Shown here: one piece after another, positions 10,854 through 63,274 of the stretch
Layout of the letters: the number at the start of each line of letters is the position of its first letter
Position numbering within the stretch: the first letter of the stretch is position 1
Origin: Ischnura elegans
Taxonomy: Eukaryota > Arthropoda > Insecta > Odonata > Coenagrionidae
Direction: 5' to 3'
Assembly (NCBI RefSeq): GCF_921293095.1
Contig: NW_025791721.1
Span: 1-64,000 of the forward strand
Length of the DNA stretch: 64,000 nt
Program-made: the position numbers and the translations under genes
The notes under the pieces: model-generated
What the model was told of the DNA's origin: nothing
Seen by the model: the letters and a program-made list of their open reading frames with translations, nothing else
The model's database searches: none

Positions 10854-13406
10854 GGAATTGATTGTAAAACGTAAAATCAGAAACGTTTCCTCAGACTCGT
10901 GAAATTGGAGACCAGCAAAACGCCATTGTCATATGATTGAATGAAGACTATTTTAAGTCCTCGACACTCATTTTCGCACACCGCATGTGTTATGATTTCC
11001 GGGAATATTGTAAACTGTGCTCTTTCAATGCGTTACTGATTGTTGCGAGGTAACCGTGGGGGCTCGAAAGTTAAATAGCTTTCGCCATGAGTGATAATTA
11101 CTCGATTTCATTACATCAAACTTTTTTATCGCTGTTCTTTCCTGGGAAAGGGAATGATATATGTGATTGTTGACGTTCTAATTATCCTTAGCAACCGGGT
11201 GTTTGCTGGTTTCATTGCTGTTGTTTTCAATTGTTTCAACAAGTACGAACGCTGAAGTTGTTGCACCGATTTGCGTGTGGGAAGTGTTCCCCTACATTTA
11301 GCTTGCATTGAAATATTCTGCTTGTTGCGAATTAAGTGTCGATAGTAAGTATCGTACGTAGGCGTTTTGTTGTCTTTGATAGGCCGTCGAAATTGTGCTT
11401 CGTAGGACGTCGTGCGTTTGATGAGTAACTGTTACAATAAATCTGTAATGGAATTGATGTAATGAATAGTTCACGAAACAACTCCGCGATTAATATATTT
11501 CTCGAATGCATCTGCAAGCTTTGTCCGTTTAACCGATTGCAAGCGTGCCATTACAACGTAAATGAGACATAATGAAAGAAAGAAATTGCGTCCTTCATGT
11601 TCCGGGAGCACAATTTTATCCATCGCATGACACGCAAGTTCGGACGACAGCATTTTGTTTTGCTTTTCTCCAGGCTCGACACCCCCGATACCGGCTGCCT
11701 AGTCAGTGTGCGTGTCGAGACTTGCAGGAACTCAAATCGTATGGGAGTCGAAGTGGTCCGCTAGTTTTGAACGCGAAAATAAAATGCGATACGCCGAGCG
11801 ACGCTCGGTGGTCGGCAGTTAATAGCATTGCCCGGATTTAATTTCCTTCAGTCAAAATTAACATTCACCAACGATGAGAAATGTGCAGGTTTACAATGAT
11901 GTGTTCATAGATTGAATTTATAAGTGGTTTTACGTGCGAAACGGACGCAAGCTTTGCGTCTTCGGACGAAAAGGCTATGTGCCATTGCTGTCATTAATAG
12001 TAATTGTTCGAGACAGTCAAGATCCGAGGACTCGACAGCGTATGCATTGGCATTGTTGACCTCGGTCGTAAACAATAGCCCGGGTGCGCTGTCCCTCGGG
12101 GGATCGAACGTTCAAACTTGTGTTTGCACGCGCCCGGCGAGGCAGGCACCGGACTGCGGAGTGGCCTCCCTCGCACCATCTAGCGGCAGCGCGTGTTACT
12201 TTTTGAGCACTCACGATGCAATACTTGTCCCGGGATGCGGATGACGAGATTAATTATTACATTGTTGCAAGTTTGTCAGTGACACCTGACATTACGTCGT
12301 TTGTATCTTCCACCTTTTGACGCTACACACGTGTAAGAAAAGGAATGATGAATGATCAATAGCCGATCCGGTTAATGAAGGGAATCGCACGTAGCAGGGT
12401 TTTAATTATTACGCTATGAATTAATTTTCGTTTCCAGAAAATCTAAAAGGAGAATACTAATCGTTGAAAGCATTTCACAAATTGACCTTCGTCTTCTTTT
12501 TTTAAAGAATTTTTCTCGGCATTCTCTGGCAATGCATAGCTCGTGGTAGCTGAGTTAAAATATTTTTTTAAGTTTAATAGTTGCCAGTTTCCCGCAGTAG
12601 TTGGATGTGCTTTAGTGTCTCTCAATTCCGTTATTTCATGTACTCGATATTTCAAAATGTGTTTCTGAAAAATGTCTGTAGCAACGGTGTGCTTGTTACT
12701 GTAATGGCGATTTCTTTCAGCTCCCATCGCTTAGTGAATGTCGCCTGTTGTTGTGTCAACTGTTTCATGATCGAAATTATTTTGGGTATGCATTTAATTT
12801 TAAAAATGGATTCGCTGGAAATGGAGCATTATGGAATGCAGACAGGAAATGCAGTTCTCTCAAGGAATAATTTCGAGAAGTATATTGTTCGGCGTTACAT
12901 TACTTTATTTAAATTTTCCGGGCTTGACTGTTTTAAGCGCGGTTTCTCTACGAATGACATAACGAATGTATCAACCTAGGAACAGAAATATATTATCCAA
13001 GAGTGGTGAATAAAAAAGTTATATCGATCGTTCGTGGAACAATATAATTTTCGCTGTAATCACGGACGTTTCCTTCATGAGATGTCATTTACTATACTCA
13101 CGGAATTTACTCGAGCGAAATGATTTTTTTCAGTATGTACGATGTAAGTAACTTACGTGTAGAATACGGAAGGAATGGTATGGGCCTAAGAAATGGCATG
13201 GACTGCACAAAGGCAGCGTTCTGCGCGATAAGGAAAAGTTAATTGGGAAAACTGAAGTGGCGTGTTTCAATCGTTTCACTTGAAGGAAGTGGGAGTACTG
13301 CCATTTCACGTGAAAGAAAATGCAATGCACATCCTTCAACGCATGCATGTGGTGAATAACTTGTAATTAGTTCTCATAAGGATAGGGGAAAAAAATAAAA
13401 AGTGAT
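10854..13406. other. Spacer up to the canonical 5S gene (unit 1)
   Basis: No gene recognised. About 12475-12990 is a diverged duplicate of 3110-3800 but without the embedded 5S sequence. The stretch just before the 5S gene (minus-strand downstream) ends in T-runs that would terminate RNA polymerase III. The unit 2 copy is about 48569-51121. Confidence 0.6.
12173..12187. promoter_or_regulatory. CTCF-like motif 4 (unit 1)
   Basis: GCACCATCTAGCGGC with an upstream GGACTGCGGAGTGG stretch, 1.2 kb from the canonical 5S gene. Confidence 0.45.
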
Positions 13407-13514
13407 ACCAACAGCACCCGGTGTTCCCAGGCGGTCACCCATCCAAGTACTATCCGGGCCCGACGTTGCTTAACTTCGGTGATCGGACGAGAACCGGTGT
13501 ATTCAACGTGGTAT
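13407..13514 (-). pseudogene. 5S rRNA gene, 3' part, split by a LINE (unit 1)
   Basis: Minus-strand positions 11-118 of a canonical insect-like 5S rRNA gene, including box A (AAGTTAAGCAACGTCGGG), the intermediate element and box C, followed by a pol III T-run terminator at about 13389-13402. The first 15 nt of the gene lie 5.8 kb away at 19345-19359. The break falls at gene positions 11-15; ATACC is present on both sides (plus strand GGTAT at 13510-13514 and 19345-19349), a 5-bp target-site duplication. Apart from the insertion the gene looks normal, so it was probably functional before the insertion. Confidence 0.95.
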
Positions 13515-13732
13515 TTTTTTTTTTATTTTTTTAAATATTTTAATGTCAGAATTCAAAAACAATACAAAATAGAACATAATACAAGTCACTTCAATGCCCT
13601 TAATAATTTTTTTTTTACATACAAAAAGTAGAAAAAAAAGAAAAATTTTGAATGTATAAAAAACTTTTCATACAGATTATGACCATTTTTTTTTTTTTTA
13701 GCTCTCTTTTCTTCTATTATCTTGAAGTAGGA

Positions 13733-13807
13733 GGCCTGGGGATTCGAACGTCCGGTCTCACTCACTGCACTTCACTCTTCACTGGCCGGACGTCGATCCA
13801 CCAGGCC
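13733..13807 (-). other. tRNA-like stem-loop 1a in the 3' UTR of element 1
   Basis: In the element's sense the module opens GGCCTGGTGGATCGACG and closes GTTCGAATCCCCAGGCC. The outer 7 bp (GGCCTGG/CCAGGCC) and inner 8 bp (ACGTCCGG/CCGGACGT) pair perfectly around a loop of about 27 nt. The start matches a tRNA box A (TGGC..GGTGG) and the end a box B (GTTCGAATCC). Because box B takes part in the hairpin, the fold is hairpin-like and not a normal cloverleaf. It lies 218 nt from the element's 3' end. Confidence 0.7.
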
Positions 13808-14033
13808 ACCGTCACTTGCATTCATTCACACTTAAAACACGTCCTATGAGCTTTTTATAAAGTCCAAAGTGGTCATATGAAACAAAAATTTTATTATTTT
13901 TTTTTTTTACCGGAATTTCTTATTATCTTGTAACACTTACAGTTACAAATTTTTAAACAATTATACATTCCACAAAGTTTATAGTATACATTACACCATT
14001 CCTTGACCAATTAACACAATAAAATATTTTGGA

Positions 14034-14102
14034 GGCCTGGGGACTCGAACACCCGACCGACCATCTCCTCCGTTTGCCGGCCGGGCTTCTATCCACCAGG
14101 CC
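14034..14102 (-). other. tRNA-like stem-loop 1b in the 3' UTR of element 1
   Basis: Same module as 1a, 301 nt further into the element. The outer stem GGCCTGG/CCAGGCC is kept. The inner stem is a different sequence but still pairs (CCCGGCCG with CGGTCGGG), so changes are compensatory. Box B-like text reads GTGTTCGAGTCC. Confidence 0.7.
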
Positions 14103-14377
14103 ACCGCGGTCTCTTAACCAACCCCAAGAAATTTCTCACTACATACGTGGTAGGTCTTTATGATCCATTTTATTATTATTAAATGCATAATTCAGATTCA
14201 ATATTACAATTTAGGTGAAAATATAAAGCACTCAATGAATCAATGTTTACACAGGAAAGAGGTTTCCTTTTTTTTTTTTTTTCAGGGTTAAAATTAATTT
14301 CATACATTAGTAATACACTTTAAAAGAACCATATACATAATATTTCTTTCCTAAAGTTAAACATTAAGCAGTACATT

Positions 14378-17300
14378 TTAGCCGGAGTAAAACTGAAGTA
14401 ATAAGTTTTTAGCATCCTTGTTTAAAAATATAATTTCTTTTTCATTTACCTTTTTATTTACTTCCCCACTTCGATTTATTATATCATAAATGTATCTACC
14501 AATTATGAACACTATCACTTCATTTTTGTACGATGGGAACACTTTAAAGTTTAACGATAAAATATTCCAACTATCTGTATCTCCATCACCAAATAGATTT
14601 ATATTTTTAAATGCCCTTTTAATTTTTTTCCATTCTTCCCTAACACTTAAACAATTTATGAACTTGTGCTTTAAATCTTCCACCATATTACACTGAGTAC
14701 ATTTACCCGATAACTCTTTCCCTATTTTAAACAATTTTTCTTTCGTGATTACTAAATCATTTACAACATTAAAAATCGCTATTTTATACTCCATTGGCAT
14801 ATTTACCTTTTTTAAATTTTCCCACGTTTTCTTATTTGGTCTTTGTTTTATGCTAATATCCTGTCTGAGACTGACTAGGTATTTGTAAACCTTTTTTGTA
14901 ACAATCAGCTCAGCCATTTCCATCTTTGGGATGATCTCTTTCAAATCTTTCACATAGATTTTGAAAATTTCCGTTGATTCCATCACGTTAAGAGATTTTT
15001 TTAACAGAGCTTTTTTATATTCGTTCTCTCCATCTATGGTCTTTACAATGGCAGCGTAAAATAGGGCTTTCGCCTTGCTGGGGAAATCGATGAGGCCTAT
15101 TCCCCCCTCACCCCATTTCTGAATGGCTCTTTGTTTATTAATTTTAAAGATATATTCTTTCCATGTGAAGAAGTTTATATATTTTATAATACTAGCGGCA
15201 ATGTCGTTTGGGGGCGGTAATACGTGGCCGACATACCACATTTTGCTCAGAATTTTTAAATTTAGTAAAGCTACCCTTTGTAAAATATTTAATTTTCTAT
15301 CGTTTAATCGAAAGCATTCTCCTACCATATAATTTTTCAGGAATTCCCAGTTTTTCCTCACTGTATTCCCAATATCCCTCTCCCAATGAATCCCTAAAAT
15401 TTTAATTGTTGCGTTTTCCTTCCAAAAGTTGGTACTGAAGGTACCTTCACTTCTTAAATTTAAAAAACTGGTTTTATCTCTATTCACATTCATTCCACTC
15501 ATTTTACAATATGTTTCCAAAACCTCACTTATTATACTATGATGCTGGGCTTCCCGTGCCAAAATGGTCACATCATCAGCGTATGCTATTGCCGGCAGCA
15601 TTCTATTTTCAATGCGTATTCCCAGCCCCCTTTGCATCAGCATATCCAACAGGGGATTTAGCTGAACGCAAAACAGCAACATTGAGAGAGGACAACCTTG
15701 CCTCAGAGATTTTTGGACTGGAATCCAATTTGTATATACCGATGGTTTAATTTTAATTTTTACCTGGGAGTCATTATATAGGGTTTTTATTAGGTTTATG
15801 ATACTAGTCGGAAATTCCATTTTCCTCATAACCTCAAAGAGGAAATCCATGTTTACTCTGTCGAAAGCTTTCTCAAAATCTACCCCTATCAGCTGTAGAT
15901 TCTCCTCTTCTAAAGTATCCTTTGATGTTATAATGTCCCTAATTATTCCCGTTGCGGTAATGATATTGTCACCTCCTGTTTTAACCGCAAATTGTAGCGG
16001 ATGCATGAATTCTTCACTCTTTAACATTATTCTATTTTTTATAATTTTTGCCAAAACCTTGTAGTCCGTATTTAAAACAGTGATTGGGCGATAATCTTTT
16101 ATATTTTTCGGGGATTTACATTTTGGAATCAAAATTACTTTCCCCTCTCTCTGGGACTTTGTTAAAACACCTTTCCTAATGTTATAAGTGAGGGCCTCAA
16201 ATAAACTGTTTTCTATTAAAGTACTAAAGATTATGTAAAATTCCGACCCAAGGCCGTCAGTTCCTGCCGCTTTCCCTGCTTTTAATTCCAAAATTGCGCC
16301 CCTTAAATCCCCCAACGTAAAATCCCCTTCTATATTTTCGATTCCATCTTCAGAAAGTTTATGCTCTAAGGTAAAGTCTTTCTTTTCAATTTTACTGCCC
16401 ACCGAGAGCGTATTTTGGAAATAATTACACACAAAATCTTTTATTTCATTTTCATCTGTTAATGTAATGTTGTCGTCTGGGCTATAAAGACTTTTTATTT
16501 CTGTTTCCATTCTTTCTTTATGTTCTCTCACGAAGTGAAACAAAGATTTATTTTCTCCCTCCATGTAATCCCTACTGTTTTTAACAGTGCAAAAGTCCTG
16601 TCTTTCTTTCTCCAGGTATTCTATTTTCTTTTTTATTTTATATGCCATCTCTAGGTTATCCCTTAAGCTGAGACAGCCTCTCAGGGCTTTTTTATAAAAA
16701 TTTAGCAAAGATTTAATATTCCTTATTTTCTTTACACCCTGTTGAGCGTAAAATTCCCTTGATTTTGTTTTTAAGATTTCCCATTTCAACCCCGGGTTTA
16801 GATGTTCAAATCTGCAATTCCACTCTCTCCATTTATTTCTAAAGATCTCTTGCAGATTTTTGTCCTGCAAAAGATTAATATTTATTTTTTTATCACGGCC
16901 CAGTTTCGTATGTGAAAGGTTGTTATTTATTGATACTTTTAAAATGACCAAGTTATGGTCACTGCATGTTACTGAGAGGCTTTCCTGTGTCTCCAGGCTA
17001 ACATCCGAGTTCTTTCGGAGGTAGAATCTGTCTATTCTCGTGGCATATGTTCTTGTGATTAAAGTATAATCTATTTTTTCTGAAGCGTCTACTAGCTCAT
17101 TTGTGTCTACTGCGTTTATAGTGTTGAGTAAACTTTTTAATTCTTTGTTCAACGGGTAAATTATTTTTTTATCATTATTATAACTATCTTTTGCCTCTGT
17201 TATCGCATTAAAATCTCCCCCCAAAATTGTCTTTTTCGTGAACCCATTTAAATAAAAAGGCAAGGTAGTTGAGAAAAACTCTTTCCTCTCTTTGTACAAT

Positions 17301-17617
17301 CTACTGCCCGCCGGAGCATACACATTTATGATTTTTACAAATTTAAATTCCACTACTAGTATTCTACCGTCCGGGCTTAAACAAACATCAATAGGTTTCA
17401 AATTATTTTTAAATAAAAGCCCAGTTCCCCTGTTACCGTTAGAATTACATATAAATTTACAATTAGCAATACAACCACTCCAACAATCAGCAGGAATAAC
17501 CTCCTGCAACAATAGGATATCAAAGTTGTTCACCAAGAAACAATTTATTACCTCCTGCACCTTATTCAATGCGGATATACCGCGTATGTTTAAGGACCCG
17601 ACTTTTAATTTATTCAT
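14378..17617 (-). CDS. LINE element 1 ORF2, endonuclease-reverse transcriptase
   Basis: 1,079 codons, uninterrupted. Residues 1-235 form an AP-type endonuclease: GSLNIRG start, LLLQEV with the catalytic Glu, GGDFNAI, and a SDHNLV motif near the end. The reverse transcriptase lies at about 440-760: VILIPK, DYRPITVLN, VDFEKAFDRV, LRQGCPLSMLLF and AYADDVTIL with the YADD catalytic pair. The RQGCPLS form is typical of Tx1/L1 types and not of Jockey types. A CCHC-like knuckle (CTQCNMVEDLKHKFINC) is near residue 980. The ATG overlaps the ORF1 stop in ATGAATAA (8 nt), an arrangement suited to termination-reinitiation. The product would nick the 5S gene and prime reverse transcription there. It appears intact. 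Confidence 0.95.
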   Translation of the reverse strand: MNKLKVGSLNIRGISALNKVQEVINCFLVNNFDILLLQEVIPADCWSGCIANCKFICNSNGNRGTGLLFKNNLKPIDVCLSPDGRILVVEFKFVKIINVYAPAGSRLYKERKEFFSTTLPFYLNGFTKKTILGGDFNAITEAKDSYNNDKKIIYPLNKELKSLLNTINAVDTNELVDASEKIDYTLITRTYATRIDRFYLRKNSDVSLETQESLSVTCSDHNLVILKVSINNNLSHTKLGRDKKININLLQDKNLQEIFRNKWREWNCRFEHLNPGLKWEILKTKSREFYAQQGVKKIRNIKSLLNFYKKALRGCLSLRDNLEMAYKIKKKIEYLEKERQDFCTVKNSRDYMEGENKSLFHFVREHKERMETEIKSLYSPDDNITLTDENEIKDFVCNYFQNTLSVGSKIEKKDFTLEHKLSEDGIENIEGDFTLGDLRGAILELKAGKAAGTDGLGSEFYIIFSTLIENSLFEALTYNIRKGVLTKSQREGKVILIPKCKSPKNIKDYRPITVLNTDYKVLAKIIKNRIMLKSEEFMHPLQFAVKTGGDNIITATGIIRDIITSKDTLEEENLQLIGVDFEKAFDRVNMDFLFEVMRKMEFPTSIINLIKTLYNDSQVKIKIKPSVYTNWIPVQKSLRQGCPLSMLLFCVQLNPLLDMLMQRGLGIRIENRMLPAIAYADDVTILAREAQHHSIISEVLETYCKMSGMNVNRDKTSFLNLRSEGTFSTNFWKENATIKILGIHWERDIGNTVRKNWEFLKNYMVGECFRLNDRKLNILQRVALLNLKILSKMWYVGHVLPPPNDIAASIIKYINFFTWKEYIFKINKQRAIQKWGEGGIGLIDFPSKAKALFYAAIVKTIDGENEYKKALLKKSLNVMESTEIFKIYVKDLKEIIPKMEMAELIVTKKVYKYLVSLRQDISIKQRPNKKTWENLKKVNMPMEYKIAIFNVVNDLVITKEKLFKIGKELSGKCTQCNMVEDLKHKFINCLSVREEWKKIKRAFKNINLFGDGDTDSWNILSLNFKVFPSYKNEVIVFIIGRYIYDIINRSGEVNKKVNEKEIIFLNKDAKNLLLQFYSG

Positions 17618-19121
17618 TAGGACTCTTTTGAGAATCCCTAATAACTAAGCCCTTGACTATAGGAGCACTTCTCCTTTTCGTTTTCTGTTTATCCCAATAA
17701 TCATCATCCTTATGATCCACTTTTGAGATCGTTTCTTCACGATTCTCAGCTGTTTTGGACTCGACTCTCTCGTTCAACAGCTGATCGCCTCGGAGTTCTT
17801 TTTCCTCAGCGACCAACTCACAAACGCCACTCTCCTCATAAACAGGTTTTTCCCCCTCCGTTCCCTTCCCATCCCGCAGCTCGACGCACGTGGCGGCCAG
17901 AGCGCACTCCTCCTTCCCCTCACCCGGCTTCTCCCGCGGTCGACCAAGCGTGACGGCAGATGCACTTTCCTCCCCGCACACACTTCCCTTCCCCTCCGCC
18001 TTCTCACCACCAGGATTTCCCGTTATGTCGGCCGAGACACACTCTTTCCTCTCTCCCCCTCCGTCCCCTGCCATTCCAGTGACCCAGTCCATGTGGAAAA
18101 TTCCAATGTCTGAGTCCCCCTCCTTCTCACTCGAGGACTCCTTACCCTCCCCCAAACGGTTCTGAAAGCCAGGTACCTTATTTCGCGTCATGGAAAATTC
18201 CACGCTTTTCCCGTCAATTCTCATTTTTTTAGTGACATTTTGATCTTTGCTTATAATTTCTAAATCACCGTTCGTGCAAGAGGATGAGTCCGAAACACCA
18301 CTAAGATTCCTCACTCTCCCTTCCCTCTTTCCCCTTTCCCCTCTTCTTGCCCCCTTTTTTTTCTCTTGAGACAAGTCCTTATTTACCAAGCCCTCACTCC
18401 CTGCACTTGTCTTTTTAATTGTACCCAGTGTTTTAATACCACTCCCTTCCCCTCCAAAATCAGCTTGTCTATAGCTAACTTCCATCTCCTCTTCCTCCTC
18501 TACTGTGATTGACTTAGCGGCATCACTATAGCCCCTTTTTAACACAGTATTTAAATTTGGACAATTAATACGTAAGTGTTCGGTGCTACCACATCTGGAG
18601 CAGGTTTGAATCTGCCCATCATAATATATCACCGCCCTTTCCCCAGACACATTAATATAACTTGGGATGTTTTTTTCTACAATCATTTTAACTGATCGGT
18701 TTCCATTCCATTTCTTGAATCTGTGCTCTCCCCCCCATCTTGACTCAGAATAATCCAAAATTTTTCCGTAGTCTCCCAAAACACCACATACCTGCTCTCG
18801 GGTGATCTCAAAGGGCAGCATGCATATCCTCACGTATGATGCCCTTCGCGTGGCCGGCTCTACTCTCACGAGTCCTCTTTTTCGATGTTTGGATGGGTAG
18901 GGCACAAGACCTTCCGCTTCCTGAAGTATCCTCTGCATCGCTTCCTCGGTTACCATCTTGAGGAACACCGACTTCTTAAATGGTCCAAACTGAATCCCGA
19001 CGATCTCTTCGTCCTTCACGCCCAACTCTTCTTCAAGGAAAATCATGAGCTCATAGCTCGTTAAATCGTTAACCACTTCCGCAAGATTTATCTTGATTGT
19101 TGCTACTCTTTCTGTCGGCAC
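17610..19121 (-). CDS. LINE element 1 ORF1, RNA-binding protein
   Basis: About 500 codons. Residues 1-100 and 90-160 look like RRM-type folds (ASYVRICMLPFEITREQVCG, then a GKILDY segment). A stretch typical of Tx1 ORF1 follows (IPSYINVSGERAVIYYDGQ), leading into a CCHC knuckle at about 175-188 (CSRCGSTEHLRINC). The rest is a long, charged, low-complexity tail. The expected role is binding element RNA in the ribonucleoprotein. Oddity: the open frame begins at a GTG; the upstream in-frame stop is about 18 nt earlier and the first in-frame ATG is codon 26 (ending at 19046), inside the first conserved region. Non-AUG initiation or a shortened N terminus is implied. The ORF1 stop overlaps the ORF2 start. 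Confidence 0.85.
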   Translation of the reverse strand: MPTERVATIKINLAEVVNDLTSYELMIFLEEELGVKDEEIVGIQFGPFKKSVFLKMVTEEAMQRILQEAEGLVPYPSKHRKRGLVRVEPATRRASYVRICMLPFEITREQVCGVLGDYGKILDYSESRWGGEHRFKKWNGNRSVKMIVEKNIPSYINVSGERAVIYYDGQIQTCSRCGSTEHLRINCPNLNTVLKRGYSDAAKSITVEEEEEMEVSYRQADFGGEGSGIKTLGTIKKTSAGSEGLVNKDLSQEKKKGARRGERGKREGRVRNLSGVSDSSSCTNGDLEIISKDQNVTKKMRIDGKSVEFSMTRNKVPGFQNRLGEGKESSSEKEGDSDIGIFHMDWVTGMAGDGGGERKECVSADITGNPGGEKAEGKGSVCGEESASAVTLGRPREKPGEGKEECALAATCVELRDGKGTEGEKPVYEESGVCELVAEEKELRGDQLLNERVESKTAENREETISKVDHKDDDYWDKQKTKRRSAPIVKGLVIRDSQKSPNE

Positions 19122-19344
19122 ACTGACAGACTTTCACGCCGTCGCGTTTCCGCGCACTAGCAAAAAACAACTTTTAAAAGCGCAAAAACTGCGCCGCAAG
19201 ATCGCAAAAACAAAACACGATCGCCTTTTCCCAGGCCAGCGGAGCCCGGCGATGCCTAAGCAAACGCCGGGCAGAGAGAAAACCGGTCTCGCTTCGGTGT
19301 GCGCTCGAGCGTGTCGACGGAGCTCGTCGCAGACACGTCCGTCC

Positions 19345-19359
19345 GGTATGGCCGTTGGC
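19345..19359 (-). pseudogene. 5S rRNA gene, first 15 nt (unit 1)
   Basis: GCCAACGGCCATACC on the minus strand, the 5' end of the gene whose remainder is 13407-13514. It abuts the 5' end of the inserted LINE. Confidence 0.93.
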
Positions 19360-22283: not shown

Positions 22284-22756
<473 letters not shown>

Positions 22757-22757
22757 G

Positions 22758-46100: not shown

Positions 46101-49100
46101 CCCTTGCACTTTGTATCTTAGGCACTGTGCACTGTTTGAAATGTTGACGAAAGAGTGGAAGGAAGAATATTTTTCGCTAATGTTTTCCTTAGCAACGGAT
46201 TGCTGGTTTCACATTAGTGAATACGGAATAATTAAATGGAAGTGTTTAGCGTGTTATATCGTCGTCCTTAAATTTGCATGAGTGAAGTGATGTTAATTGC
46301 CAGATCTTGATTAGTAATACGTGTCAATGCTAAGTCTAGTAAGTGCAATGAAAGAACAATTAACGATGTTGACGATTACACGTCCCATTCCTACCGTCAG
46401 GCGTCTTTGGTTATTCTTAACGTTCCTTTCGTGGGAATGTAATTCCTTTTGTGCTATTTCATTTTCTCTTGGCAGCGGAATAACGTAAATAATTAGGGCA
46501 GGGATATTATAACGTAAATAATTAGGGCAGTTTTATGGTAAGCTGTGATAACTTAACATGTGATTTTAAAAGCGAACTGTTAGCATAACGGAGCCCAAGG
46601 AATGTTATCGGACGTAGTAGAGGAATTACTTTTCAAACGTCAAAGGCAAACTCACAAACATTTCCCAGATTGTACTGCCTCTTTCAGTAATTCCTGATTG
46701 CTACATCATTTTCTTCGCCATACGAATGTTAACAGTGACATCCGTACTTGATATATTGGTTTAAAATCGCTTGGAAATCGTCGAAAACCACGTAAGACTC
46801 TGCATCATGAGGTACGTTTTGGTGGATATTTTGAGGTACAAGAGTACTCTATATTCCAATTATGCAAATGTTCACCACATTGCGCTTGAATCTTGGCTTA
46901 ATTTACGAAATTATATGCGACTTTAAGGCGGGGATTTGGTCGTTCGACGTGCCATTGTTGTGGAGAACATTAATAGTTCACGACAATTGACAATCGATGG
47001 TTCATTAGGTATGGCAAGGATTCGCATATTGCCGCTGCGTTGCGAATAATTATCCCAATTGCTTTCCCACGCGCGATTCCTAATTCCCAACAGCGATGCG
47101 CGCAGTGGACTGCTGGAGGTTCCCCCCGCACCATCTAGCGGCCGAATCTGTATTACCACTCGATCGCTCTTGCTGCGGCAGCTGCAGTGAGAAGACGTCG
47201 CGAGTAACTAATATCAGTGATAATTGTATAATGTTTATCAGCTGTAACTGACATAACGCCGGTTCTGTAGTGTTCTTTGTGACGCTTGGCAATCGTGAGG
47301 AAAGGATTGAAAGTGTCTGTGTCGCTGGATGCATAGGAAAAGTTAGTGAAATGAACGGGAATGAAGTGTGTTGACAACAGCGATTGTGATCTACAGCCGA
47401 AGAGCCGAGTAAGTACGCTGTTACTTATTTTTCCACTTTTTACATTCATAATCGTTGTCTGTGTTATTCCTTGGCTTTCTCTTTTGTGTAGAAAAGTGAA
47501 CTGTGATGTGATTAATACACTGTTTGACGATGATGACGGTTGATTGATCCCAGCGTTTAATTGTGCATCTTAAGAAAACAGAAATTAGTCGTGGCGTCCT
47601 TAATTGTTACAAGTTGAGTGAATCGTGGCATAATTTAAAAGTGTTTGCCTTTGAATGTGCTAAGACGTTGATGGTTTTCCCTTGCACTTTGTATCTTAGG
47701 CACTGTGCACTGTTTGAAATGTTGACGAAGGAGTTGAAGGAAGAATATTTTTCGCGAATTCCTTAGCAACGGATTGTTTGGTGTCACAAGATTTATTACG
47801 GAATATTTTAATGGAAGTGTTTGCGGTGTTACATCGTGGTCGTATACTCTGTATGTGTGAAGTTATGTACATTGGCAGATCCGGATTAATAATAAGTGTA
47901 ATGCTATGTATTTGGACTGCTGTTATGAAAGCAGTCAGCGATATGGAATAGTGCACACCGCATTTCCACTGTCAGCCGGCGTTGATTATTGTTAACGTTC
48001 CTTTCGTCCGAATATAATTCCTTGTGTGATATTTCATAACGTCTTGGCAGCGGAACTACTAAATTATTTGGAGCAACGATAACATTTTATGGTAATGCTG
48101 TGTTAAGTTGACATGTGACTTGAAAAGCGTAGTGTTACCATCACGGAGGCCAAAAGAATTTTATCGGATATGGAAAACAAAATTTATTACGGAATATTTT
48201 AATGGAAGTGTTTGCGGTGTTACATCGTGGTCGTATACTCTGTATGTGTGAAGTTATGTACATTGGCGGATCCGGATTAATAATAAGTGTAATGCTATGT
48301 ATTTGGACTGCTGTTATGAAAGCAGTCAGCGATATCGAATAGTGCACACCGCATTTCCACTGTCAGCCGGCGTTGATTATTGTTAACGTTCCTTTCGTCC
48401 GAATATAATTCCTTGTGTGATATTTCATAACTTCTTGGCAGCGGAACTACTAAATTATTTGGAGCAACGATAACATTTTATGGTAATGCTGTGTTAAGTT
48501 AACATGTGACTTGAAAAGCGTAGTATTAGCATCACGGAGGCCAAAAGAATTTTATCGGATATAGAAAAGGAATTGATTGTAAAACGTAAAATCAGAAACG
48601 TTTCCTCAGACTCGTGAAATTGGAGACCAGCAAAACGCCATTGTCATATGATTGAATGAAGACTATTTTAAGTCCTCGACACTCATTTTCGCACACCGCA
48701 TGTGTTATGATTTCCGGGAATATTGTAAACTGTGCTCTTTCAATGCGTTACTGATTGTTGCGAGGTAACCGTGGGGGCTCGAAAGTTAAATAGCTTTCGC
48801 CATGAGTGATAATTACTCGATTTCATTACATCAAACTTTTTTATCGCTGTTCTTTCCTGGGAAAGGGAATGATATATGTGATTGTTGACGTTCTAATTAT
48901 CCTTAGCAACCGGGTGTTTGCTGGTTTCATTGCTGTTGTTTTCAATTGTTTCAACAAGTACGAACGCTGAAGTTGTTGCACCGATTTGCGTGTGGGAAGT
49001 GTTCCCCTACATTTAGCTTGCATTGAAATATTCTGCTTGTTGCGAATTAAGTGTCGATAGTAAGTATCGTACGTAGGCGTTTTGTTGTCTTTGATAGGCC

Positions 49101-49902
49101 GTCGAAATTGTGCTTCGTAGGACGTCGTGCGTTTGATGAGTAACTGTTACAATAAATCTGTAATGGAATTGATGTAATGAATAGTTCACGAAACAACTCC
49201 GCGATTAATATATTTCTCGAATGCATCTGCAAGCTTTGTCCGTTTAACCGATTGCAAGCGTGCCATTACAACGTAAATGAGACATAATGAAAGAAAGAAA
49301 TTGCGTCCTTCATGTTCCGGGAGCACAATTTTATCCATCGCATGACACGCAAGTTCGGACGACAGCATTTTGTTTTGCTTTTCTCCAGGCTCGACACCCC
49401 CGATACCGGCTGCCTAGTCAGTGTGCGTGTCGAGACTTGCAGGAACTCAAATCGTATGGGAGTCGAAGTGGTCCGCTAGTTTTGAACGCGAAAATAAAAT
49501 GCGATACGCCGAGCGACGCTCGGTGGTCGGCAGTTAATAGCATTGCCCGGATTTAATTTCCTTCAGTCAAAATTAACATTCACCAACGATGAGAAATGTG
49601 CAGGTTTACAATGATGTGTTCATAGATTGAATTTATAAGTGGTTTTACGTGCGAAACGGACGCAAGCTTTGCGTCTTCGGACGAAAAGGCTATGTGCCAT
49701 TGCTGTCATTAATAGTAATTGTTCGAGACAGTCAAGATCCGAGGACTCGACAGCGTATGCATTGGCATTGTTGACCTCGGTCGTAAACAATAGCCCGGGT
49801 GCGCTGTCCCTCGGGGGATCGAACGTTCAAACTTGTGTTTGCACGCGCCCGGCGAGGCAGGCACCGGACTGCGGAGTGGCCTCCCTCGCACCATCTAGCG
49901 GC
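43168..49902. promoter_or_regulatory. Four CTCF-like motifs of unit 2
   Basis: The four motifs recur unchanged in unit 2 at 43168-43182, 45524-45538, 47128-47142 and 49888-49902, all in the same orientation and at the same spacing as in unit 1. The coordinates of this entry span all four sites and are not one continuous element. Confidence 0.45.
43631..43834. mobile_element. Foldback element (unit 2), MITE-like
   Basis: Exact counterpart of the foldback at 5916-6119. The arms are still fully complementary, so the element entered before the units were last homogenised and has not lost its symmetry. Confidence 0.75.
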
Positions 49903-51121
49903 AGCGCGTGTTACTTTTTGAGCACTCACGATGCAATACTTGTCCCGGGATGCGGATGACGAGATTAATTATTACATTGTTGCAAGTTTGTCAGTGACAC
50001 CTGACATTACGTCGTTTGTATCTTCCACCTTTTGACGCTACACACGTGTAAGAAAAGGAATGATGAATGATCAATAGCCGATCCGGTTAATGAAGGGAAT
50101 CGCACGTAGCAGGGTTTTAATTATTACGCTATGAATTAATTTTCGTTTCCAGAAAATCTAAAAGGAGAATACTAATCGTTGAAAGCATTTCACAAATTGA
50201 CCTTCGTCTTCTTTTTTTAAAGAATTTTTCTCGGCATTCTCTGGCAATGCATAGCTCGTGGTAGCTGAGTTAAAATATTTTTTTAAGTTTAATAGTTGCC
50301 AGTTTCCCGCAGTAGTTGGATGTGCTTTAGTGTCTCTCAATTCCGTTATTTCATGTACTCGATATTTCAAAATGTGTTTCTGAAAAATGTCTGTAGCAAC
50401 GGTGTGCTTGTTACTGTAATGGCGATTTCTTTCAGCTCCCATCGCTTAGTGAATGTCGCCTGTTGTTGTGTCAACTGTTTCATGATCGAAATTATTTTGG
50501 GTATGCATTTAATTTTAAAAATGGATTCGCTGGAAATGGAGCATTATGGAATGCAGACAGGAAATGCAGTTCTCTCAAGGAATAATTTCGAGAAGTATAT
50601 TGTTCGGCGTTACATTACTTTATTTAAATTTTCCGGGCTTGACTGTTTTAAGCGCGGTTTCTCTACGAATGACATAACGAATGTATCAACCTAGGAACAG
50701 AAATATATTATCCAAGAGTGGTGAATAAAAAAGTTATATCGATCGTTCGTGGAACAATATAATTTTCGCTGTAATCACGGACGTTTCCTTCATGAGATGT
50801 CATTTACTATACTCACGGAATTTACTCGAGCGAAATGATTTTTTTCAGTATGTACGATGTAAGTAACTTACGTGTAGAATACGGAAGGAATGGTATGGGC
50901 CTAAGAAATGGCATGGACTGCACAAAGGCAGCGTTCTGCGCGATAAGGAAAAGTTAATTGGGAAAACTGAAGTGGCGTGTTTCAATCGTTTCACTTGAAG
51001 GAAGTGGGAGTACTGCCATTTCACGTGAAAGAAAATGCAATGCACATCCTTCAACGCATGCATGTGGTGAATAACTTGTAATTAGTTCTCATAAGGATAG
51101 GGGAAAAAAATAAAAAGTGAT
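48569..51121. other. Spacer up to the canonical 5S gene (unit 2)
   Basis: Counterpart of 10854-13406 and almost identical to it. No gene recognised. Confidence 0.6.
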
Positions 51122-51229
51122 ACCAACAGCACCCGGTGTTCCCAGGCGGTCACCCATCCAAGTACTATCCGGGCCCGACGTTGCTTAACTTCGGTGATCG
51201 GACGAGAACCGGTGTATTCAACGTGGTAT
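51122..51229 (-). pseudogene. 5S rRNA gene, 3' part, split by another LINE (unit 2)
   Basis: Same sequence and same end point as 13407-13514 (gene positions 11-118), but joined to a different retrotransposon at 51230. The 5' 10-15 nt of the gene are missing because the far end of the element and its flank have been deleted. Confidence 0.95.
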
Positions 51230-51444
51230 GATTCAAAACATTTATTATTTCAAATATCAAAATACATACATCATGGAAAAAAAACATTCGTACATAAGAG
51301 AATGGGAAGCTGCACAACAACAAAATTGTACAGTTAAATTAAAGCCTTTTAAAGTCCTCTTTTTTTCCCATTGCAACAGATAAAGAACAAAAATTATTGA
51401 CATATTAAAAAAGAAAAAATAATTTCTTTTCTTCCAAAGTTGGC

Positions 51445-51515
51445 GGCCCGGGGACTCGAACACCCAGCTAAAACACAGCACTTCGCACACCAGCCGGGCG
51501 TCGATCCACTAGGCC
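51445..51515 (-). other. tRNA-like stem-loop 2a in the 3' UTR of element 2
   Basis: The element 2 counterpart of 1a, 215 nt from its 3' end. The sense strand opens GGCCTAGTGGATCGACG and closes GTGTTCGAGTCCCCGGGCC. The inner stem CCCGGCT/AGCTGGG pairs over 7 positions. Confidence 0.7.
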
Positions 51516-51739
51516 ATCGCTGCTTTACACTCGAGATGGGAAAAACAACCAATAAAAGCTTCAGAATGCACTCACGATGCGGTTACAAAAAAAAAAAAGT
51601 TCTTTTTTTCTCTTCCTTGAATAAAGCAAATAAACAATCATTTTTAATTAAGAATGAAACAATTTTTACATATTTGTAAAGATTCTTCCCTATTGAAATC
51701 TTCTAAGAAATGTTTTTAACAGAAAAAATTGGACAAGGG

Positions 51740-51813
51740 AGCCTGGGGATTCGAACACCCGGACCAGACACTCCATACTTCTCCTTACTGGCCGGGCGCC
51801 GATCCACCAGGCC
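51740..51813 (-). other. tRNA-like stem-loop 2b in the 3' UTR of element 2
   Basis: The element 2 counterpart of 1b, 295 nt from 2a (301 nt in element 1). It opens GGCCTGGTGGATCGGCG and closes GTGTTCGAATCCCCAGGC. The inner stem CCCGG/CCGGG is extended by CCAG/CTGG with one bulge. Confidence 0.7.
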
Positions 51814-51939
51814 ACCGTAAGTTTCTGAGCTCACAAGCATAAAATGCGGTCTAAGAGCTTCCCATCTGGTTTTTCCCTAAATTTATTCTGTCATTCCATT
51901 TCTCATTCACATCATTTGTTTGTCCATCTGGGCGTTGAA

Positions 51940-54900
51940 TTAACCGGGGTCAAAGTCCACGATCTCCATGAAAACATTTTTTAAAAAGGAACGAAAGTTC
52001 GGCGGTGCGCCGGGTAATGGAGCACACAACACGAAACTTAAGAGCCCTTCTCCCACTGGCTTTCTTTGTAATGTTAAGAAGGTAAATTTAGAAATGATGG
52101 CCGAAAGTGCATTGGTTTTAAAAGAAGGAAAAAGTTTGAAATTCAAAGTTAAGAGTGTATGGTCGTCAAGCCGAGGACAAGTACCAAAGGAATCTATATG
52201 AAAAAAAATATCTCTAATAGCCCTCCATGCCCTCGGGCTATCGCCACAGCCGAGGACATGGTGGGGCAGGTCATCCATGTGATTACACACAGGGCAGAGG
52301 GGCGCGTCAGCCAGACCCATTTTAAAAAGATTTACCCTTGTGAGCTGAAGGCCCGCAATCACGCCAAACATAACACTGGCGACACACTCCTCCACCCTGC
52401 ATGCCGCCCAGTTCCTCCACGAGTTGGCGGAGGGGGGCGCAGAACCCCCCTCCCCTCCCCTTAAAACCCGTTCATACAAGCGCTTGACCAAGAATGCCTC
52501 GCCCGGGCGAACAATGTCGGCAACCGCCCGCGCTGATGCGAGCGATTTTTTTAACTCGTGAGAGGAGGCGCTGCCGGCAGCCCATGCCGCCTTGAGCAAC
52601 GCGCTCCTCTCCGGCGAGTCCCCTCCCAGAATCTTAAAAGCGATCTTACAATGGATCACTCGCGCTTTTATTTCAGCATTAATAAGGTCAAGCCCCCCCT
52701 TATCGCGACTCAAATACAGCTGTTGCCGTTTCACTTTTCGTGGCATTTTGTGCCACACCATGCTGTTTGTAAGTGTAACAAGTTGTGCATGGTGCTTTCG
52801 TGTTAATGGCCATGTATGCGCCACGTACCAAATCTTCGGATAAATCAATGTATTAATTAATTTAACCCTAGCCGTCAGGGGCAGGGAGACACAAGTGTAT
52901 TTACGAATATTAAAAGTTATTGTCTGAAGGACCTCATCCCAATTATGCTCGAGCATGGCGGGGATTGGCTTCTCCCACCATATACCGAGAATCTTGACTG
53001 GATCCTGCGTCACCTTCCAGCAGGGATTAGACGGGGGTGTCCCTTGTAAGACAATCGCCTTACTTTTAACGTGGTTAATTTCCACTCCCCCCGCCGTATA
53101 CGCCTCGATTACCTCACGAGCAGACTCCATCTGCTCGTGATTGTCGATGAAAAGAGTAATGTCATCGGCGTACACAATCCCGGTATATCTTGAGCCGAAA
53201 CGCTCAATGCCAACCCCCGCCAGCTGTAATCCTCTAATTAGAGGGTCCATGGCTACCGCGAAGAGAGCCATAGATAGGGGGCACCCCTGACGGACTGAAT
53301 TCCTGACTAAAAAGGGCCCTGAAAACCCTCCCCCAACCCGAAGACAGGCAGTGGCGTCAGTGTATAATAATTTAATAACATTAGTAAAAATATCAGGAAA
53401 AGCCATTCGTTTTAAAACAGTTAAAATGAACTCGATCCTAATAAAATCAAAGGCTTTGCTGAGATCTATAGCTAAAACACAATAAAAAGGATTACTGTTT
53501 GGCGTGATAAAAAGGTCTCTCAGCAAAGCCGAAGCATCCAGGATGCTACGTTCTTTAGAGACCGCATACTGGGATTTGTCTAAAATCAAATCGGCAACGG
53601 CCGAGAATCTGTTTTTTAAAATTCGGCTAAAAATTTTAATATCACAGTTTAATAGGGCGATCGGCCGTAAGTCGTTACACGACTTCGGCCGATCCTTCTT
53701 TGGCAATAAGGTAATCACCGCGGTCCGCTGACTTGGAGCCAACTCGCCGCCAGAAATATAAAAATCATTAAAAATTCGCGTCAACACCGGAGTTAAAATG
53801 TCCCAGCATGCGGCATAAAACTCGTAGGGAAGCCCGTCCGAGCCGGGTGACTTACCCTTGGGGAGGGAGCGGAGAACCAGCTCCACCTCCTCCCCTCGGA
53901 TCGCGCTTTCGAGCTCGAGGGACTCATCAGGCGGGAGCGTGGGTAAGGCGGGGAGTGGGGGGCAGTGCGCATCACTCCAAGCAGGGTAGCGGTCATATGT
54001 GCCCTTGAAATGTCCCTCCGCCTCACTCATGAGGCGGTCGATATTTGCAGTGGAGTGCTTATTTTTCATTCTTATTACTCGCTTGAGCTCAGAGAGGGAT
54101 AGCGGGCCCCACCCCTCCTTATCTATCTCCCGCTGCCAGCTGCGGGGAGAGTAACGAGCAATTTCATGGGTTAGAATAGTGCCTTTCAATTCTCGCACCA
54201 TGGCGTAATAGTTATCAGGCCGGCGAGGCAAGGTAATGAGCTCTTTCAAAGCCAACCTATAAAATTTTATTGTGGCATCTTTCCGTTTTTTCCATTGCCT
54301 GGACATTTTCCTCAGCAAGAGGGTAGCCTTGGGCTTGAAGATGCTCTCCCACCATATAATTGCGTCCATGTTTGGGTCGAAGGAGTCAGCCAGCTGAACT
54401 ATCTTCGCCCTGATTAACTCAATGTACTCAGACATTCCTAAGAGTCGAGTATCTAGACGCCAAAAGGGAGTTGCATTGGAAATGACCGGGGTGAGGGAAG
54501 GTAAGGGTAGGGAGAGGTCTAGAATAAGGGCACAGTGGTCAGAGAGAGACACTGGCAATAAATACGGGGTTCGAGGGAAGGATTTAAGGGCTTTGGATAA
54601 AAAGATGAAGTCAATTCTCGAGCGCGATGTTGGGCCCGTGCGCGTGAATGGCACAGTGTCAGAATTGGAATTTAAAAAACTATCTGTTAAACATACAGAA
54701 TCTATTAACATTTTAAAAGCCCGGCTCGGAGGTTCGATACGAGCGCGGGAAGATTGACGATCTTCGCCGCGATAAGTACAATTAAAATCCCCCGCGAGAA
54801 TGGCTTTCCCAGTAAAAACATGTAAATACGGCAACAGTGTTTCATTTAAAAACAAATCTCTGTCCACCCTCCGCTCAACATGCGCAGGAGCGTAGACGTT

Positions 54901-55179
54901 TACCACATGGATGTCGAATACAGTTAGGGAGGTTATTCTCCCTGAGGGGTGGAATCTGATATTTCTTACCGGAAGCCCGGATTTAATTAAAATAGTCGTA
55001 CCTCGGCCCGGCCCGTCGCAATTGGCGAAGGACCGGTAGAGGGGGTCAGGCCAAATGATCCCCTCTAATGACTCTTGAATACATGCGATGTCTATATTTT
55101 GTGTTTTTATGAAATTTAGAATTAAATTTATCTTAAGGGGATTATAAATCCCCGCAATGTTTAAGGAAAGAATTTTCAT
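51940..55179 (-). CDS. LINE element 2 ORF2, endonuclease-reverse transcriptase
   Basis: 1,079 codons from the ATG at 55179, the same length as element 1 ORF2. The frame is open 9 codons further, to a GTG overlapping the ORF1 TGA. Endonuclease motifs: ILSLNIAG, IACIQES, AILAGDFNC, SRIDFIFLS and LSDHCALIL. Reverse transcriptase motifs: ITLLPKKDRP, DLRPIALLN, AIDLSKAFDFI, VRQGCPLSMALF and VYADDITLFID. A C-terminal knuckle CPVCNHMDDLPHHVLGC follows. The layout is as in element 1, but the amino-acid sequence is far apart, so the two are separate families. The frame is intact, but the element cannot be whole because ORF1 and the 5' UTR are cut. Confidence 0.94.
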   Translation of the reverse strand: MKILSLNIAGIYNPLKINLILNFIKTQNIDIACIQESLEGIIWPDPLYRSFANCDGPGRGTTILIKSGLPVRNIRFHPSGRITSLTVFDIHVVNVYAPAHVERRVDRDLFLNETLLPYLHVFTGKAILAGDFNCTYRGEDRQSSRARIEPPSRAFKMLIDSVCLTDSFLNSNSDTVPFTRTGPTSRSRIDFIFLSKALKSFPRTPYLLPVSLSDHCALILDLSLPLPSLTPVISNATPFWRLDTRLLGMSEYIELIRAKIVQLADSFDPNMDAIIWWESIFKPKATLLLRKMSRQWKKRKDATIKFYRLALKELITLPRRPDNYYAMVRELKGTILTHEIARYSPRSWQREIDKEGWGPLSLSELKRVIRMKNKHSTANIDRLMSEAEGHFKGTYDRYPAWSDAHCPPLPALPTLPPDESLELESAIRGEEVELVLRSLPKGKSPGSDGLPYEFYAACWDILTPVLTRIFNDFYISGGELAPSQRTAVITLLPKKDRPKSCNDLRPIALLNCDIKIFSRILKNRFSAVADLILDKSQYAVSKERSILDASALLRDLFITPNSNPFYCVLAIDLSKAFDFIRIEFILTVLKRMAFPDIFTNVIKLLYTDATACLRVGGGFSGPFLVRNSVRQGCPLSMALFAVAMDPLIRGLQLAGVGIERFGSRYTGIVYADDITLFIDNHEQMESAREVIEAYTAGGVEINHVKSKAIVLQGTPPSNPCWKVTQDPVKILGIWWEKPIPAMLEHNWDEVLQTITFNIRKYTCVSLPLTARVKLINTLIYPKIWYVAHTWPLTRKHHAQLVTLTNSMVWHKMPRKVKRQQLYLSRDKGGLDLINAEIKARVIHCKIAFKILGGDSPERSALLKAAWAAGSASSHELKKSLASARAVADIVRPGEAFLVKRLYERVLRGGEGGSAPPSANSWRNWAACRVEECVASVMFGVIAGLQLTRVNLFKMGLADAPLCPVCNHMDDLPHHVLGCGDSPRAWRAIRDIFFHIDSFGTCPRLDDHTLLTLNFKLFPSFKTNALSAIISKFTFLTLQRKPVGEGLLSFVLCAPLPGAPPNFRSFLKNVFMEIVDFDPG

Positions 55180-55202
55180 TACGGGCCAGTGGGAAGAAAG
55201 AC

Positions 55203-55715
55203 TCACGTGGGAATCGAACTTGAATAAGGGGGCACGTCTTCCGTCTTTTGTTTGCTCTTTCGTCTCGACGACCCGTTATGGGATCGGCGGCGTGAGCGTC
55301 GAGAATCCGTCGGCTGCTCTTGGCTGCTTCCGCCTTCTCCCACACCCCGCTCCGGTTCGGCATCGCTGCCACTTAGACTCCCGCTGGGAGGGACAGCTCC
55401 GTGGGACGGCGAGCGTGTGGGGGAGGTCGTCGCCTGCCGGTCGCCTTTCTCCGCCATGTCGAGGGTGAGGGATGGGATGGGGTCGCTCTCGCTGATATGC
55501 GAGAGGTCGGAGAGGGAGTTGTGAAGGGAAAGGGAGGTAGGGGAGGTGGAGGGGGAAGTGACGGTGCTGATGGTAATTACTTCGTTTGGGGTGAAAAGGT
55601 CTTCTATTATTTCACCCTCATATTCCGCTGCGTTATCTGCCACGTGTTCTGTAGCAGGTTCCGCACCGCTGGTGTCCATCAGTCCTTCTTTGGAAGACTT
55701 TAGGTCGCCTTCGTC
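55203..55715 (-). pseudogene. LINE element 2 ORF1, C-terminal remnant
   Basis: About 170 codons of an open frame rich in Ser, Pro, Thr and Glu, ending in a basic stretch (SRRSRRRSHNGSSRRKSKQK). It stops 23 nt before the ORF2 ATG. Position just upstream of ORF2 and the low-complexity tail match the end of element 1 ORF1. The RRM and CCHC regions are missing because of the deletion junction at 55715/55716. Confidence 0.75.
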
Positions 55716-63200: not shown

Positions 63201-63274
63201 TACTATTGTTAACGTTTTAGAACGCATCCCGTCAGAATCCCTCGGTAATTATGGTTTTTATGAATAATTTTGAA
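60258..63274. repeat. 345-bp satellite array between units 2 and 3
   Basis: Same structure and copy number as the array at 36003-39019, with the diverged copies again on the H1 side. A few point differences separate the two arrays, for example near 61174 against 36920. Confidence 0.95.

What the first reader, a model, noticed from the sequence alone, without database searches (positions are those of the whole stretch)
51445..51813. The same stem-loop pair, at matching positions, in the unrelated 3' UTR of element 2
Seen: module distance from the 3' end is 218 nt in element 1 and 215 nt in element 2; module-to-module spacing is 301 and 295 nt. The intervening sequence looks unrelated. Conservation of layout across two families that share a target suggests that the double module is part of the 5S-targeting or RT-recognition machinery and not passive cargo.
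Basis: partly seen in the sequence, partly recalled or inferred. Interest (0 to 1): 0.9.

Follow-up and report, generated by a model that had tools for sequence, protein, structure and literature searches.

The report
Paired tRNA-like hairpins in target-specific retrotransposons
A pair of hairpins resembling tRNA promoters, held about 210 nucleotides apart, is an old conserved part of the tail of a group of jumping genes that insert into 5S rRNA genes and tRNA-like sequences; it is not limited to the 5S-inserting ones, so it probably helps the element's own machinery handle its RNA and does not choose the target.

Summary
Element 2 (51230-55715, minus) carries two ~80-nt hairpins (51736-51817, 51440-51519) matching two in element 1 (14030-14106, 13729-13811): 295-301 nt apart, 212-215 nt before the 3' end, no significant UTR similarity outside them, although the ORF2 proteins are 27% identical.

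The window's own genome (1.72 Gb) shows how general this is. Of 40 places fetched by the module sequence, 26 have a pair (19 if a duplicated block counts once), 12 one module, 2 none. Over 15 two-module loci the spacer is little conserved in sequence but 208+-11 nt long; proximal modules stay 84% identical; the stem shows compensatory changes.

The 5S-targeting reading fails. The modules also occur in elements inserted before A-box-like motifs of tRNA-like sequences, and at two 5S sites. An autonomous relative has one module (7 of 7 copies read); two families nested in the clade have no recognisable one and still hit tRNA-like targets. ORF1-only derivatives keep the pair.

Best reading: an ancestral cis-acting RNA element, perhaps tRNA-derived, most likely for template recognition. 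Function is inferred.

The parts
51736..51817 (-). element 2, distal (5') hairpin module
   Evidence: cmsearch R1 91.7 bits; fold
51440..51519 (-). element 2, proximal (3') hairpin module
   Evidence: cmsearch R1 72.6 bits at 51441-51519; fold
14030..14106 (-). element 1, distal hairpin module
   Evidence: cmsearch R1 77.1 bits
13729..13811 (-). element 1, proximal hairpin module
   Evidence: cmsearch R1 94.4 bits
51230..55715 (-). element 2 (Tx1-like non-LTR retrotransposon); 5' end lost where it joins the histone spacer, by my reading a deletion
   Evidence: unit comparison and junctions
51940..55206 (-). element 2 ORF2, endonuclease-reverse transcriptase, 1088 aa
   Evidence: Pfam PF03372, PF00078
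55203..55679 (-). element 2, 158-aa ORF taken as the rest of ORF1
   Evidence: ORF listing; no Pfam hit
13515..19344 (-). element 1 (Tx1-like), both ends inside a 5S gene
   Evidence: 5' junction GCCAACGGCCATACC|GGACGG, 3' junction poly(A)|ATACCACG
14378..17617 (-). element 1 ORF2, endonuclease-reverse transcriptase, 1079 aa
   Evidence: Pfam PF03372, PF00078
17610..19121 (-). element 1 ORF1, 503 aa, with a CCHC-type knuckle read by eye
   Evidence: ORF listing; no Pfam hit
51121..51230 (-). 5S rRNA gene 3' of element 2, first ~9 nt replaced by the element
   Evidence: Rfam RF00001; blastn
13406..13514 (-). 5S rRNA gene 3' of element 1, first ~10 nt separated from it
   Evidence: Rfam RF00001; blastn
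19345..19359 (-). first 15 nt of the split 5S gene, 5' of element 1 (includes the ATACC duplicated at the target)
   Evidence: blastn of the intact 5S gene

Best explanation
The two hairpins are an ancestral 3'-UTR RNA element of a clade of Tx1-like non-LTR retrotransposons that insert into 5S genes and tRNA-like sequences. Each is an ~80-nt imperfect inverted repeat. Its 5' arm carries an A-box-like motif and its 3' arm a B-box motif (52-58 nt apart in the four window modules), but it folds as one long hairpin, not a cloverleaf. The pair stands on either side of a spacer whose length is kept and whose sequence mostly is not, with the element's poly(A) or GAATC end usually 121-215 nt downstream. 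Shown: presence, pairing, conserved geometry, occurrence in both deep lineages and with two kinds of target, one copy or no recognisable copy in some families. Inferred: it works in the RNA, most likely as a docking structure by which the element's own ORF2 (or ORF1) protein selects its template, with two hairpins at a fixed distance giving tighter binding. Target choice is made elsewhere, probably by the endonuclease. Families with one or no module would use another 3'-end signal.
For: Over 105 pairs of 15 loci proximal modules are 84% and distal 73% identical (medians), against spacer 53% (shuffled 47%), tail 51% (47%) and 150 nt upstream 46% (45%); spacer length 208+-11 nt, tail 164+-28 (Levene p 0.008). 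Proximal modules resemble proximal more than distal modules of other loci in 15 of 15, so the pair is inherited. Stem: 96.3% of 846 cells paired, 21 cells with two-sided changes against 7.7 in shuffles (0 of 500), sliding destroys it. Both deep lineages carry it. ORF1-only elements with no ORF2 match (L017 block, L054) keep two or three modules. Precedent: ORF2 of zebrafish LINEs binds the stem-loop of the 3' tail RNA (PMC4176376, abstract).
Against: The module is not at the extreme 3' end (13-361 nt away). The autonomous family at L058-L064 shows one module in 7 of 7 copies read. Two families nested in the clade have none that R1 recognises, so it is replaceable, unless the GC-rich stretch of one of them is a much-changed module. 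Covariation is concentrated in two inner pairs; the outer arms hardly vary; the number of pairs with two-sided change (3 against 2.3) and the further pair types (17 against 16.7) do not exceed shuffles. No binding or activity was tested. The A/B-box make-up is not explained by a pure RNA role.
Confidence: 0.45

Rival explanations
1. The modules are Pol III promoter-like DNA elements (A box plus B box): they bind TFIIIC, or drive a short RNA from the 3' end, and so couple the element to Pol III chromatin.
For: B box GTTCGANTC conserved in most modules; A-to-B distance 52-58 nt in the four window modules, inside the 30-60 bp said to be needed in tRNA genes (PMC5391098, passages); every target that I could name is 5S or tRNA-like (L022 and L025 unnamed).
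Against: The A-box position that is A in tRNA genes (A14, recalled) is G in 42 of 47 modules, where hairpin pairing asks for G. Compensatory changes in the stem speak for RNA. T runs lie within about 60 nt downstream of the proximal modules of both window elements. Relatives without a recognised module target tRNA-like sites too.
Confidence: 0.15
2. The double module is a determinant of 5S targeting.
For: Both window elements and many other places sit in 5S: 13 at one site, 6 at another, of the places read.
Against: The same modules occur in elements at tRNA-like targets; copies of one family 95.6-96.3% alike (L024, L026, L027, L033) sit in four different tRNA-like targets; 5S is hit at two sites; families without a recognised module still hit tRNA-like targets.
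Confidence: 0.04
3. The hairpins serve RNA stability, nuclear export or small-RNA processing, with no direct role in template choice.
For: Long GC-rich hairpins in an AT-rich UTR; one, two or three copies tolerated.
Against: Does not readily explain the kept ~208-nt spacer or retention in ORF1-only derivatives.
Confidence: 0.22
4. The modules are passive relics: tRNA-like target sequence picked up by 3' read-through and kept only by descent.
For: A/B-box make-up; one target (L047) scores above all 400 shuffles against the distal module string and above 397 of 400 against the proximal one.
Against: Relics should decay like the spacer; modules stay 73-84% identical while the spacer is close to shuffled, and pairing is kept.
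Confidence: 0.08

Closest known systems
Mutsu, Dewa and Keno (zebrafish target-specific non-LTR retrotransposons; 5S, tRNA-Leu spacer, U2) as listed in PMC3706591 (passages)
   Same: Multicopy small-RNA-gene targets; a zebrafish protein named transposon TX1 (P0038) is among the relatives found. Mutsu is described as ~5.5 kb with two ORFs and UTRs (PMC11202950, passages), like element 1.
   Different: No Mutsu, Dewa or Keno sequence was compared here, so shared hairpins could not be checked. Here one genome holds one clade that hits two 5S sites and several tRNA-like targets.
Stringent-type LINEs with a 3' stem-loop bound by ORF2 (ZfL2-1, ZfL2-2; PMC4176376, abstract)
   Same: Conserved stem-loop in the 3' UTR.
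   Different: Those are L2-clade LINEs with a stem-loop in the 3' tail; here the hairpins are usually paired and mostly stand 121-215 nt before the end.
TRE5-A of Dictyostelium (PMC5391098, passages)
   Same: Pol III genes as targets; importance of A and B boxes.
   Different: TRE5-A inserts about 47 bp upstream of tRNA genes; here insertion is at or within about 10 nt of the A-box-like motif, or within 5S. No A/B-box module in its UTR was mentioned in the passages read.
tRNA-derived SINE heads (general knowledge)
   Same: A box and B box at tRNA-like spacing.
   Different: No cloverleaf found by ARAGORN or Rfam; one long hairpin; lies in a LINE 3' UTR, not at a 5' end.

Membership tests
Tx1-like (L1/Tx1 group) non-LTR retrotransposon | APE-type endonuclease and reverse transcriptase in ORF2 | tested here: met
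   PF03372 and PF00078 in both ORF2s
Tx1-like (L1/Tx1 group) non-LTR retrotransposon | phylogenetic grouping with a named Tx1 element | tested here: inconclusive
   The Danio TX1-named protein P0038 falls on the branch of the window clade with 91/74 support in one tree, but not in the other, where the dividing fork is weak (57/20)
Tx1-like (L1/Tx1 group) non-LTR retrotransposon | target-specific insertion | tested here: met
   Junctions in 5S and at A-box-like motifs; 2 junctions (L022, L025) fit neither
Mutsu (5S-specific) | sequence relationship to Mutsu and same 5S site | not tested
   No Mutsu sequence at hand; one paper on zebrafish 5S retrotransposons was not held
Stringent LINE 3' recognition stem-loop | conserved stem-loop with compensatory changes in the 3' UTR | tested here: met
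Stringent LINE 3' recognition stem-loop | position at the very 3' end | tested here: not met
   13-361 nt from the end, mostly 121-215
Stringent LINE 3' recognition stem-loop | bound by the cognate ORF2 protein | not testable with these tools
   needs a binding assay
tRNA or tRNA-derived SINE head | A box and B box 30-60 bp apart | tested here: inconclusive
   B box and spacing met in the window modules, but the A14 position (recalled) is G in 42 of 47 modules
tRNA or tRNA-derived SINE head | cloverleaf | tested here: not met
   ARAGORN 0 genes in the window; no Rfam tRNA hit on the two UTRs at E up to 10

The most novel reading that the evidence does not exclude
The hairpins are domesticated copies of the elements' own kind of target: tRNA-like sequence captured by 3' read-through after insertion at an A box, refolded into a single hairpin, doubled, and used as the handle by which the element's proteins pick their RNA. 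A target-specific retrotransposon would then carry mimics of its target as its template signal, held at a measured distance.
Probability: 0.22. Interest if true: 0.75.

Novelty: new variant of a known kind. Interest (0 to 1): 0.58.

Why it matters
How non-LTR retrotransposons recognise their own RNA is worked out for few clades (general knowledge). Here is a natural series in one genome, with loci carrying 0, 1, 2 or 3 modules, a spacer of kept length and ORF1-only derivatives, which makes template recognition directly testable. It also shows one clade using both 5S and tRNA-like targets, which separates target choice from the 3' RNA element.

Tried and rejected
tRNA gene: ARAGORN and Rfam give nothing on the modules. 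5S specificity: rejected by other targets and by relatives without a recognised module. Strict ~295-nt periodicity of module, module and target: fits element 1 (295, 295) and roughly element 2 (298, 288), not the other two-module loci (252-305 between modules against 127-268 to the end, L047 439). Repeat unit including a downstream GGTCA motif: after the proximal module in 7 of 18 rows, after the distal one in 1 of 18, so not part of the doubling. Viral contigs: two hits of a 5'-arm pattern lie in what looks like a prophage gene, chance; a scan with the ORF2 alignment found no relative. Tx1-like loci from other animals (contaminants in bacterial records), L003-L008: no R1 match in 6 of 6; only L003, L004, L007 and L008 were looked at for other 3'-UTR hairpins, and L004 is full of microsatellite. 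Literature for the module's 12-mers: six papers on unrelated subjects by title. Rfam on three target flanks: tRNA model positions 7-64 at E 0.11 for L033 (below the gathering score); nothing for L060; no tRNA for L027; ten whole loci gave no tRNA, only one MIR475 match. ARAGORN on two joined empty sites found nothing; on the joins the printed part named two weak calls, both for L027, which I do not use.

The 40 were found by the module itself, so they cannot show how many relatives lack it; the ORF2 search lists 46 matches and scored 43 of 14536 first-look candidates. L047 counts as a pair although its second module scores only 26.6 bits (antisense matches reach 27.9). Places are not all independent: besides the L017 block, L041 and L049 are 98% alike over 6 kb. 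The A-box test was designed after seeing the junctions, and several of its 13 junctions share one target type; per junction p runs from 0.0009 to 0.81, and for the seven L058-type copies from 0.007 to 0.20. The first identity table used gap costs that were too lax and was replaced; for both I dropped L026, L027 and L049 as near-copies but kept L024 and L033, which are one family, so the 15 loci are fewer than 15 families. L050 enters with its last two modules, one of them partial. The second tree leaves out three long-branch rows of the first.

Full report
1. The observation. Both 5S-inserted elements lie on the minus strand. Rfam finds four 5S genes; at 13406-13524 and 51121-51239 the first 9-10 nt are displaced by an element's 3' end. 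Element 1 runs from 19344 to 13515, between GCCAACGGCCATACC and ATACCACG, so it sits inside a 5S gene with ATACC on both sides. Element 2's 3' end is at the same 5S position, but its 5' end is cut: at 55716 it joins sequence that matches 21980 of the neighbouring unit. Outside them the two UTRs show no significant match. The ORF2 proteins are 27% identical over 1077 columns.

2. Anatomy of a module. About 80 nt. The common 5' arm reads TGGCCTGGTGGATCGACG, the 3' arm CGTTCGANTCCCCAGGCC; they pair, with a variable tip. An alignment of 47 modules from 28 element copies (the two window elements and 26 other places) gives 18 consensus pairs, of which two inner ones change on both sides often: C-G 22, U-A 14, U-G 10, and G-C 32, A-U 6, G-U 4. 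Of 846 cells 96.3% are paired; 21 cells have two-sided changes against 7.7 in shuffles, reached in 0 of 500; sliding by one column drops pairing to 62% or 49%. The number of pairs with a two-sided change and the number of pair types do not exceed shuffles. The arms look like A and B boxes, but no cloverleaf is found, and the place that is A14 in tRNA (recalled) is G in 42 of 47 modules, as pairing requires.

3. The genome. A 22-base pattern, up to 3 mismatches, has 84 matches in the 1.72-Gb genome, against 1 for the reversed control. By pattern and covariance model 26 of 40 have at least two modules at close range (in L047 the second is weak), 12 have one (L045 has a second one 2.4 kb away), and 2 (L019, L020) have no complete module. 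Eight of the 26 (L017, L018, L021, L023, L028, L029, L032, L034) are copies of one duplicated block that lies 0.1-3.9 Mb from contig ends, so 19 remain if it counts once. L050 and L054 have three. Start-to-start spacing is 269-305 nt except in L051 (252) and one interval of L050 (198). A 3'-arm pattern has 154 matches against 15 for its control; only the first places were listed.

4. Conserved geometry, free sequence. For 15 loci with two modules and a known end I compared all 105 pairs (L026, L027, L049 dropped as near-copies, L024 and L033 of one family both kept). Median identity: proximal module 0.84, distal 0.73, spacer 0.53 (shuffled 0.47), tail 0.51 (0.47), 150 nt upstream 0.46 (0.45). 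The spacer exceeds shuffles by more than 0.10 in 36 of 105 pairs and the tail in 28, so they are not wholly random. Spacer length is 208+-11 nt, tail length 164+-28 (Levene p 0.008). Proximal modules resemble other proximal modules more than distal ones in 15 of 15 loci; distal modules prefer distal ones in 11 of 15, with two ties and two reversals. The pair is thus old and inherited.

5. Targets. From the 3' junctions, read by eye: 13 insertions, counting elements 1 and 2, at 5S site A (before ATACC or a close variant; in eight of them another element's 5' end follows within the split gene), 6 at 5S site B (before ACACCGG), 11 at other sites that I read as tRNA-like with an A-box-like motif at the junction (L035 is weak; the duplicated block counts once), 2 with no recognised target (L022, L025), 1 with no end found (L054). 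Against 20000 random segments, 13 non-5S junctions (those 11 plus L022 and L025) combine to p 5.5e-10 for A box at the junction plus B box downstream; the test was made after the fact and some junctions share a target type. Copies of one family 95.6-96.3% alike (L024, L026, L027, L033) sit in four different tRNA-like targets. For L033 the flank fits the tRNA model from position 7 on, at E 0.11; for two other flanks no tRNA match appeared.

6. Families with one or no module. The family at L058-L064 shows one module in 7 of 7 copies read (of at least 13 near-identical matches listed), and all seven are inserted 0 to about 10 nt before an A-box-like motif; four of the seven share one repeat as target. 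By the ORF2 coordinates the whole 3' UTR is in hand for L058, L059, L063 and L064. Four places of this family have a stop-free ORF2 match over residues 4-1076, 47% identical to element 1. Its module is of the distal type of L041, on a tail like that of L041, as if two modules had recombined (inference). Two further families, with open ORF2s of 1095 aa (5 places) and 1093 aa (7 places) and 30% and 28% identity, have no module that R1 recognises in the two 3' UTRs read for each: none at E up to 10 with filters, and at most 5.4 bits without them for one locus of each. In the first of them a GC-rich stretch that contains CGGACGTTCG, about 290 nt before the end, might be a much-changed module. One family inserts before TAGCTTAACTGG, an A-box-like motif followed by GGGTTCGAATCCC; the other inserts in the middle of a tRNA-like repeat, an intact copy of which ARAGORN calls tRNA-Ser. 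In the RT tree these two nest inside the module-bearing clade (99/95), which itself has 100/98 support and two deep lineages, around elements 1 and 2 (without them). So the module was present in the ancestor and lost or changed beyond recognition at least once, by the simplest count.

7. ORF1-only derivatives. L017 and its copies, and L054, have a match to ORF1 but none to ORF2 (tblastn, E up to 1e-5) and still carry two or three modules. L017's 5' end carries ATACC and L054's carries ACCACGTTGAATAC, both as in 5S, so their RNAs seem to have begun inside a 5S gene (inference).

8. What it does. Targeting is not where the module acts: targets differ between module-bearing elements, and relatives without a recognised module keep tRNA-like targets. 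Selection on pairing, spacing and retention in ORF1-only elements points to a role in the RNA. By analogy with zebrafish L2-clade LINEs, whose ORF2 binds a 3' stem-loop (PMC4176376, abstract), I take template recognition as most likely, at 0.45. In the two families without a recognised module the tails end in a short AAGC-AATAAA-GCTT-like stem (read by eye), a candidate substitute.

9. Origin. The A and B boxes, their distance and the likeness of one target (L047) to the distal module (0 of 400 shuffles as high; proximal 3 of 400) suggest descent from tRNA-like sequence. The CAGCCC repeat (13-29 of 400) and L056 against the distal string (5 of 400) lean the same way; most other comparisons do not exceed shuffles. 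This is a lead, not a result.

10. Known work. Zebrafish has Mutsu in 5S, Keno in U2 and Dewa in the tRNA-Leu spacer (PMC3706591, passages). Jockey-like elements interrupt 5S arrays of Tribolium freemani (PMC11202950, passages). TRE5-A targets Pol III genes from about 47 bp upstream (PMC5391098, passages). In paper searches no listed title or abstract start describes paired hairpins of this kind in a LINE; only open-licence papers are held, one zebrafish 5S paper was not, and the 2004 paper that named Mutsu was not looked up.

Noticed in passing
window 1-13514 and 37714-51229: The window is part of a tandem array of ~37.7-kb units holding histone and 5S genes, 99.93% identical between the two stretches.
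   Followed up: partly
window 1-1340, 36142-39200, 60397-63450; 25184-26770: Satellites: ~345-bp units made of two ~172-bp halves, and a ~52-bp GGACTTAGT repeat.
   Followed up: no
window 22083-23816 (+), 29233-31785 (+): Two further reverse-transcriptase ORFs, closer to each other than to the Tx1-like set compared; R1 finds only the four known modules in the window.
   Followed up: partly
L040, L041, L043, L044, L045, L049, L051, L053: Two elements stacked in one 5S gene: after the 3' end of one comes a stub of 5S and then what looks like another element's 5' end.
   Followed up: partly
L017 near 4119 (minus), L054 near 4425 (minus): Copies outside 5S whose 5' ends carry 5S letters, as if the RNA had started in a 5S gene.
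   Followed up: partly
L008:2950-3115 and 3497-3678: A Tx1-like element from another animal, ahead of a U2 snRNA gene, has two unrelated GC-rich hairpins in its 3' UTR.
   Followed up: no
L065-L068: Two families without a recognised module, with 5 and 7 listed places of open, closely similar ORF2, ending in a small AAGC-AATAAA-GCTT-like stem.
   Followed up: partly
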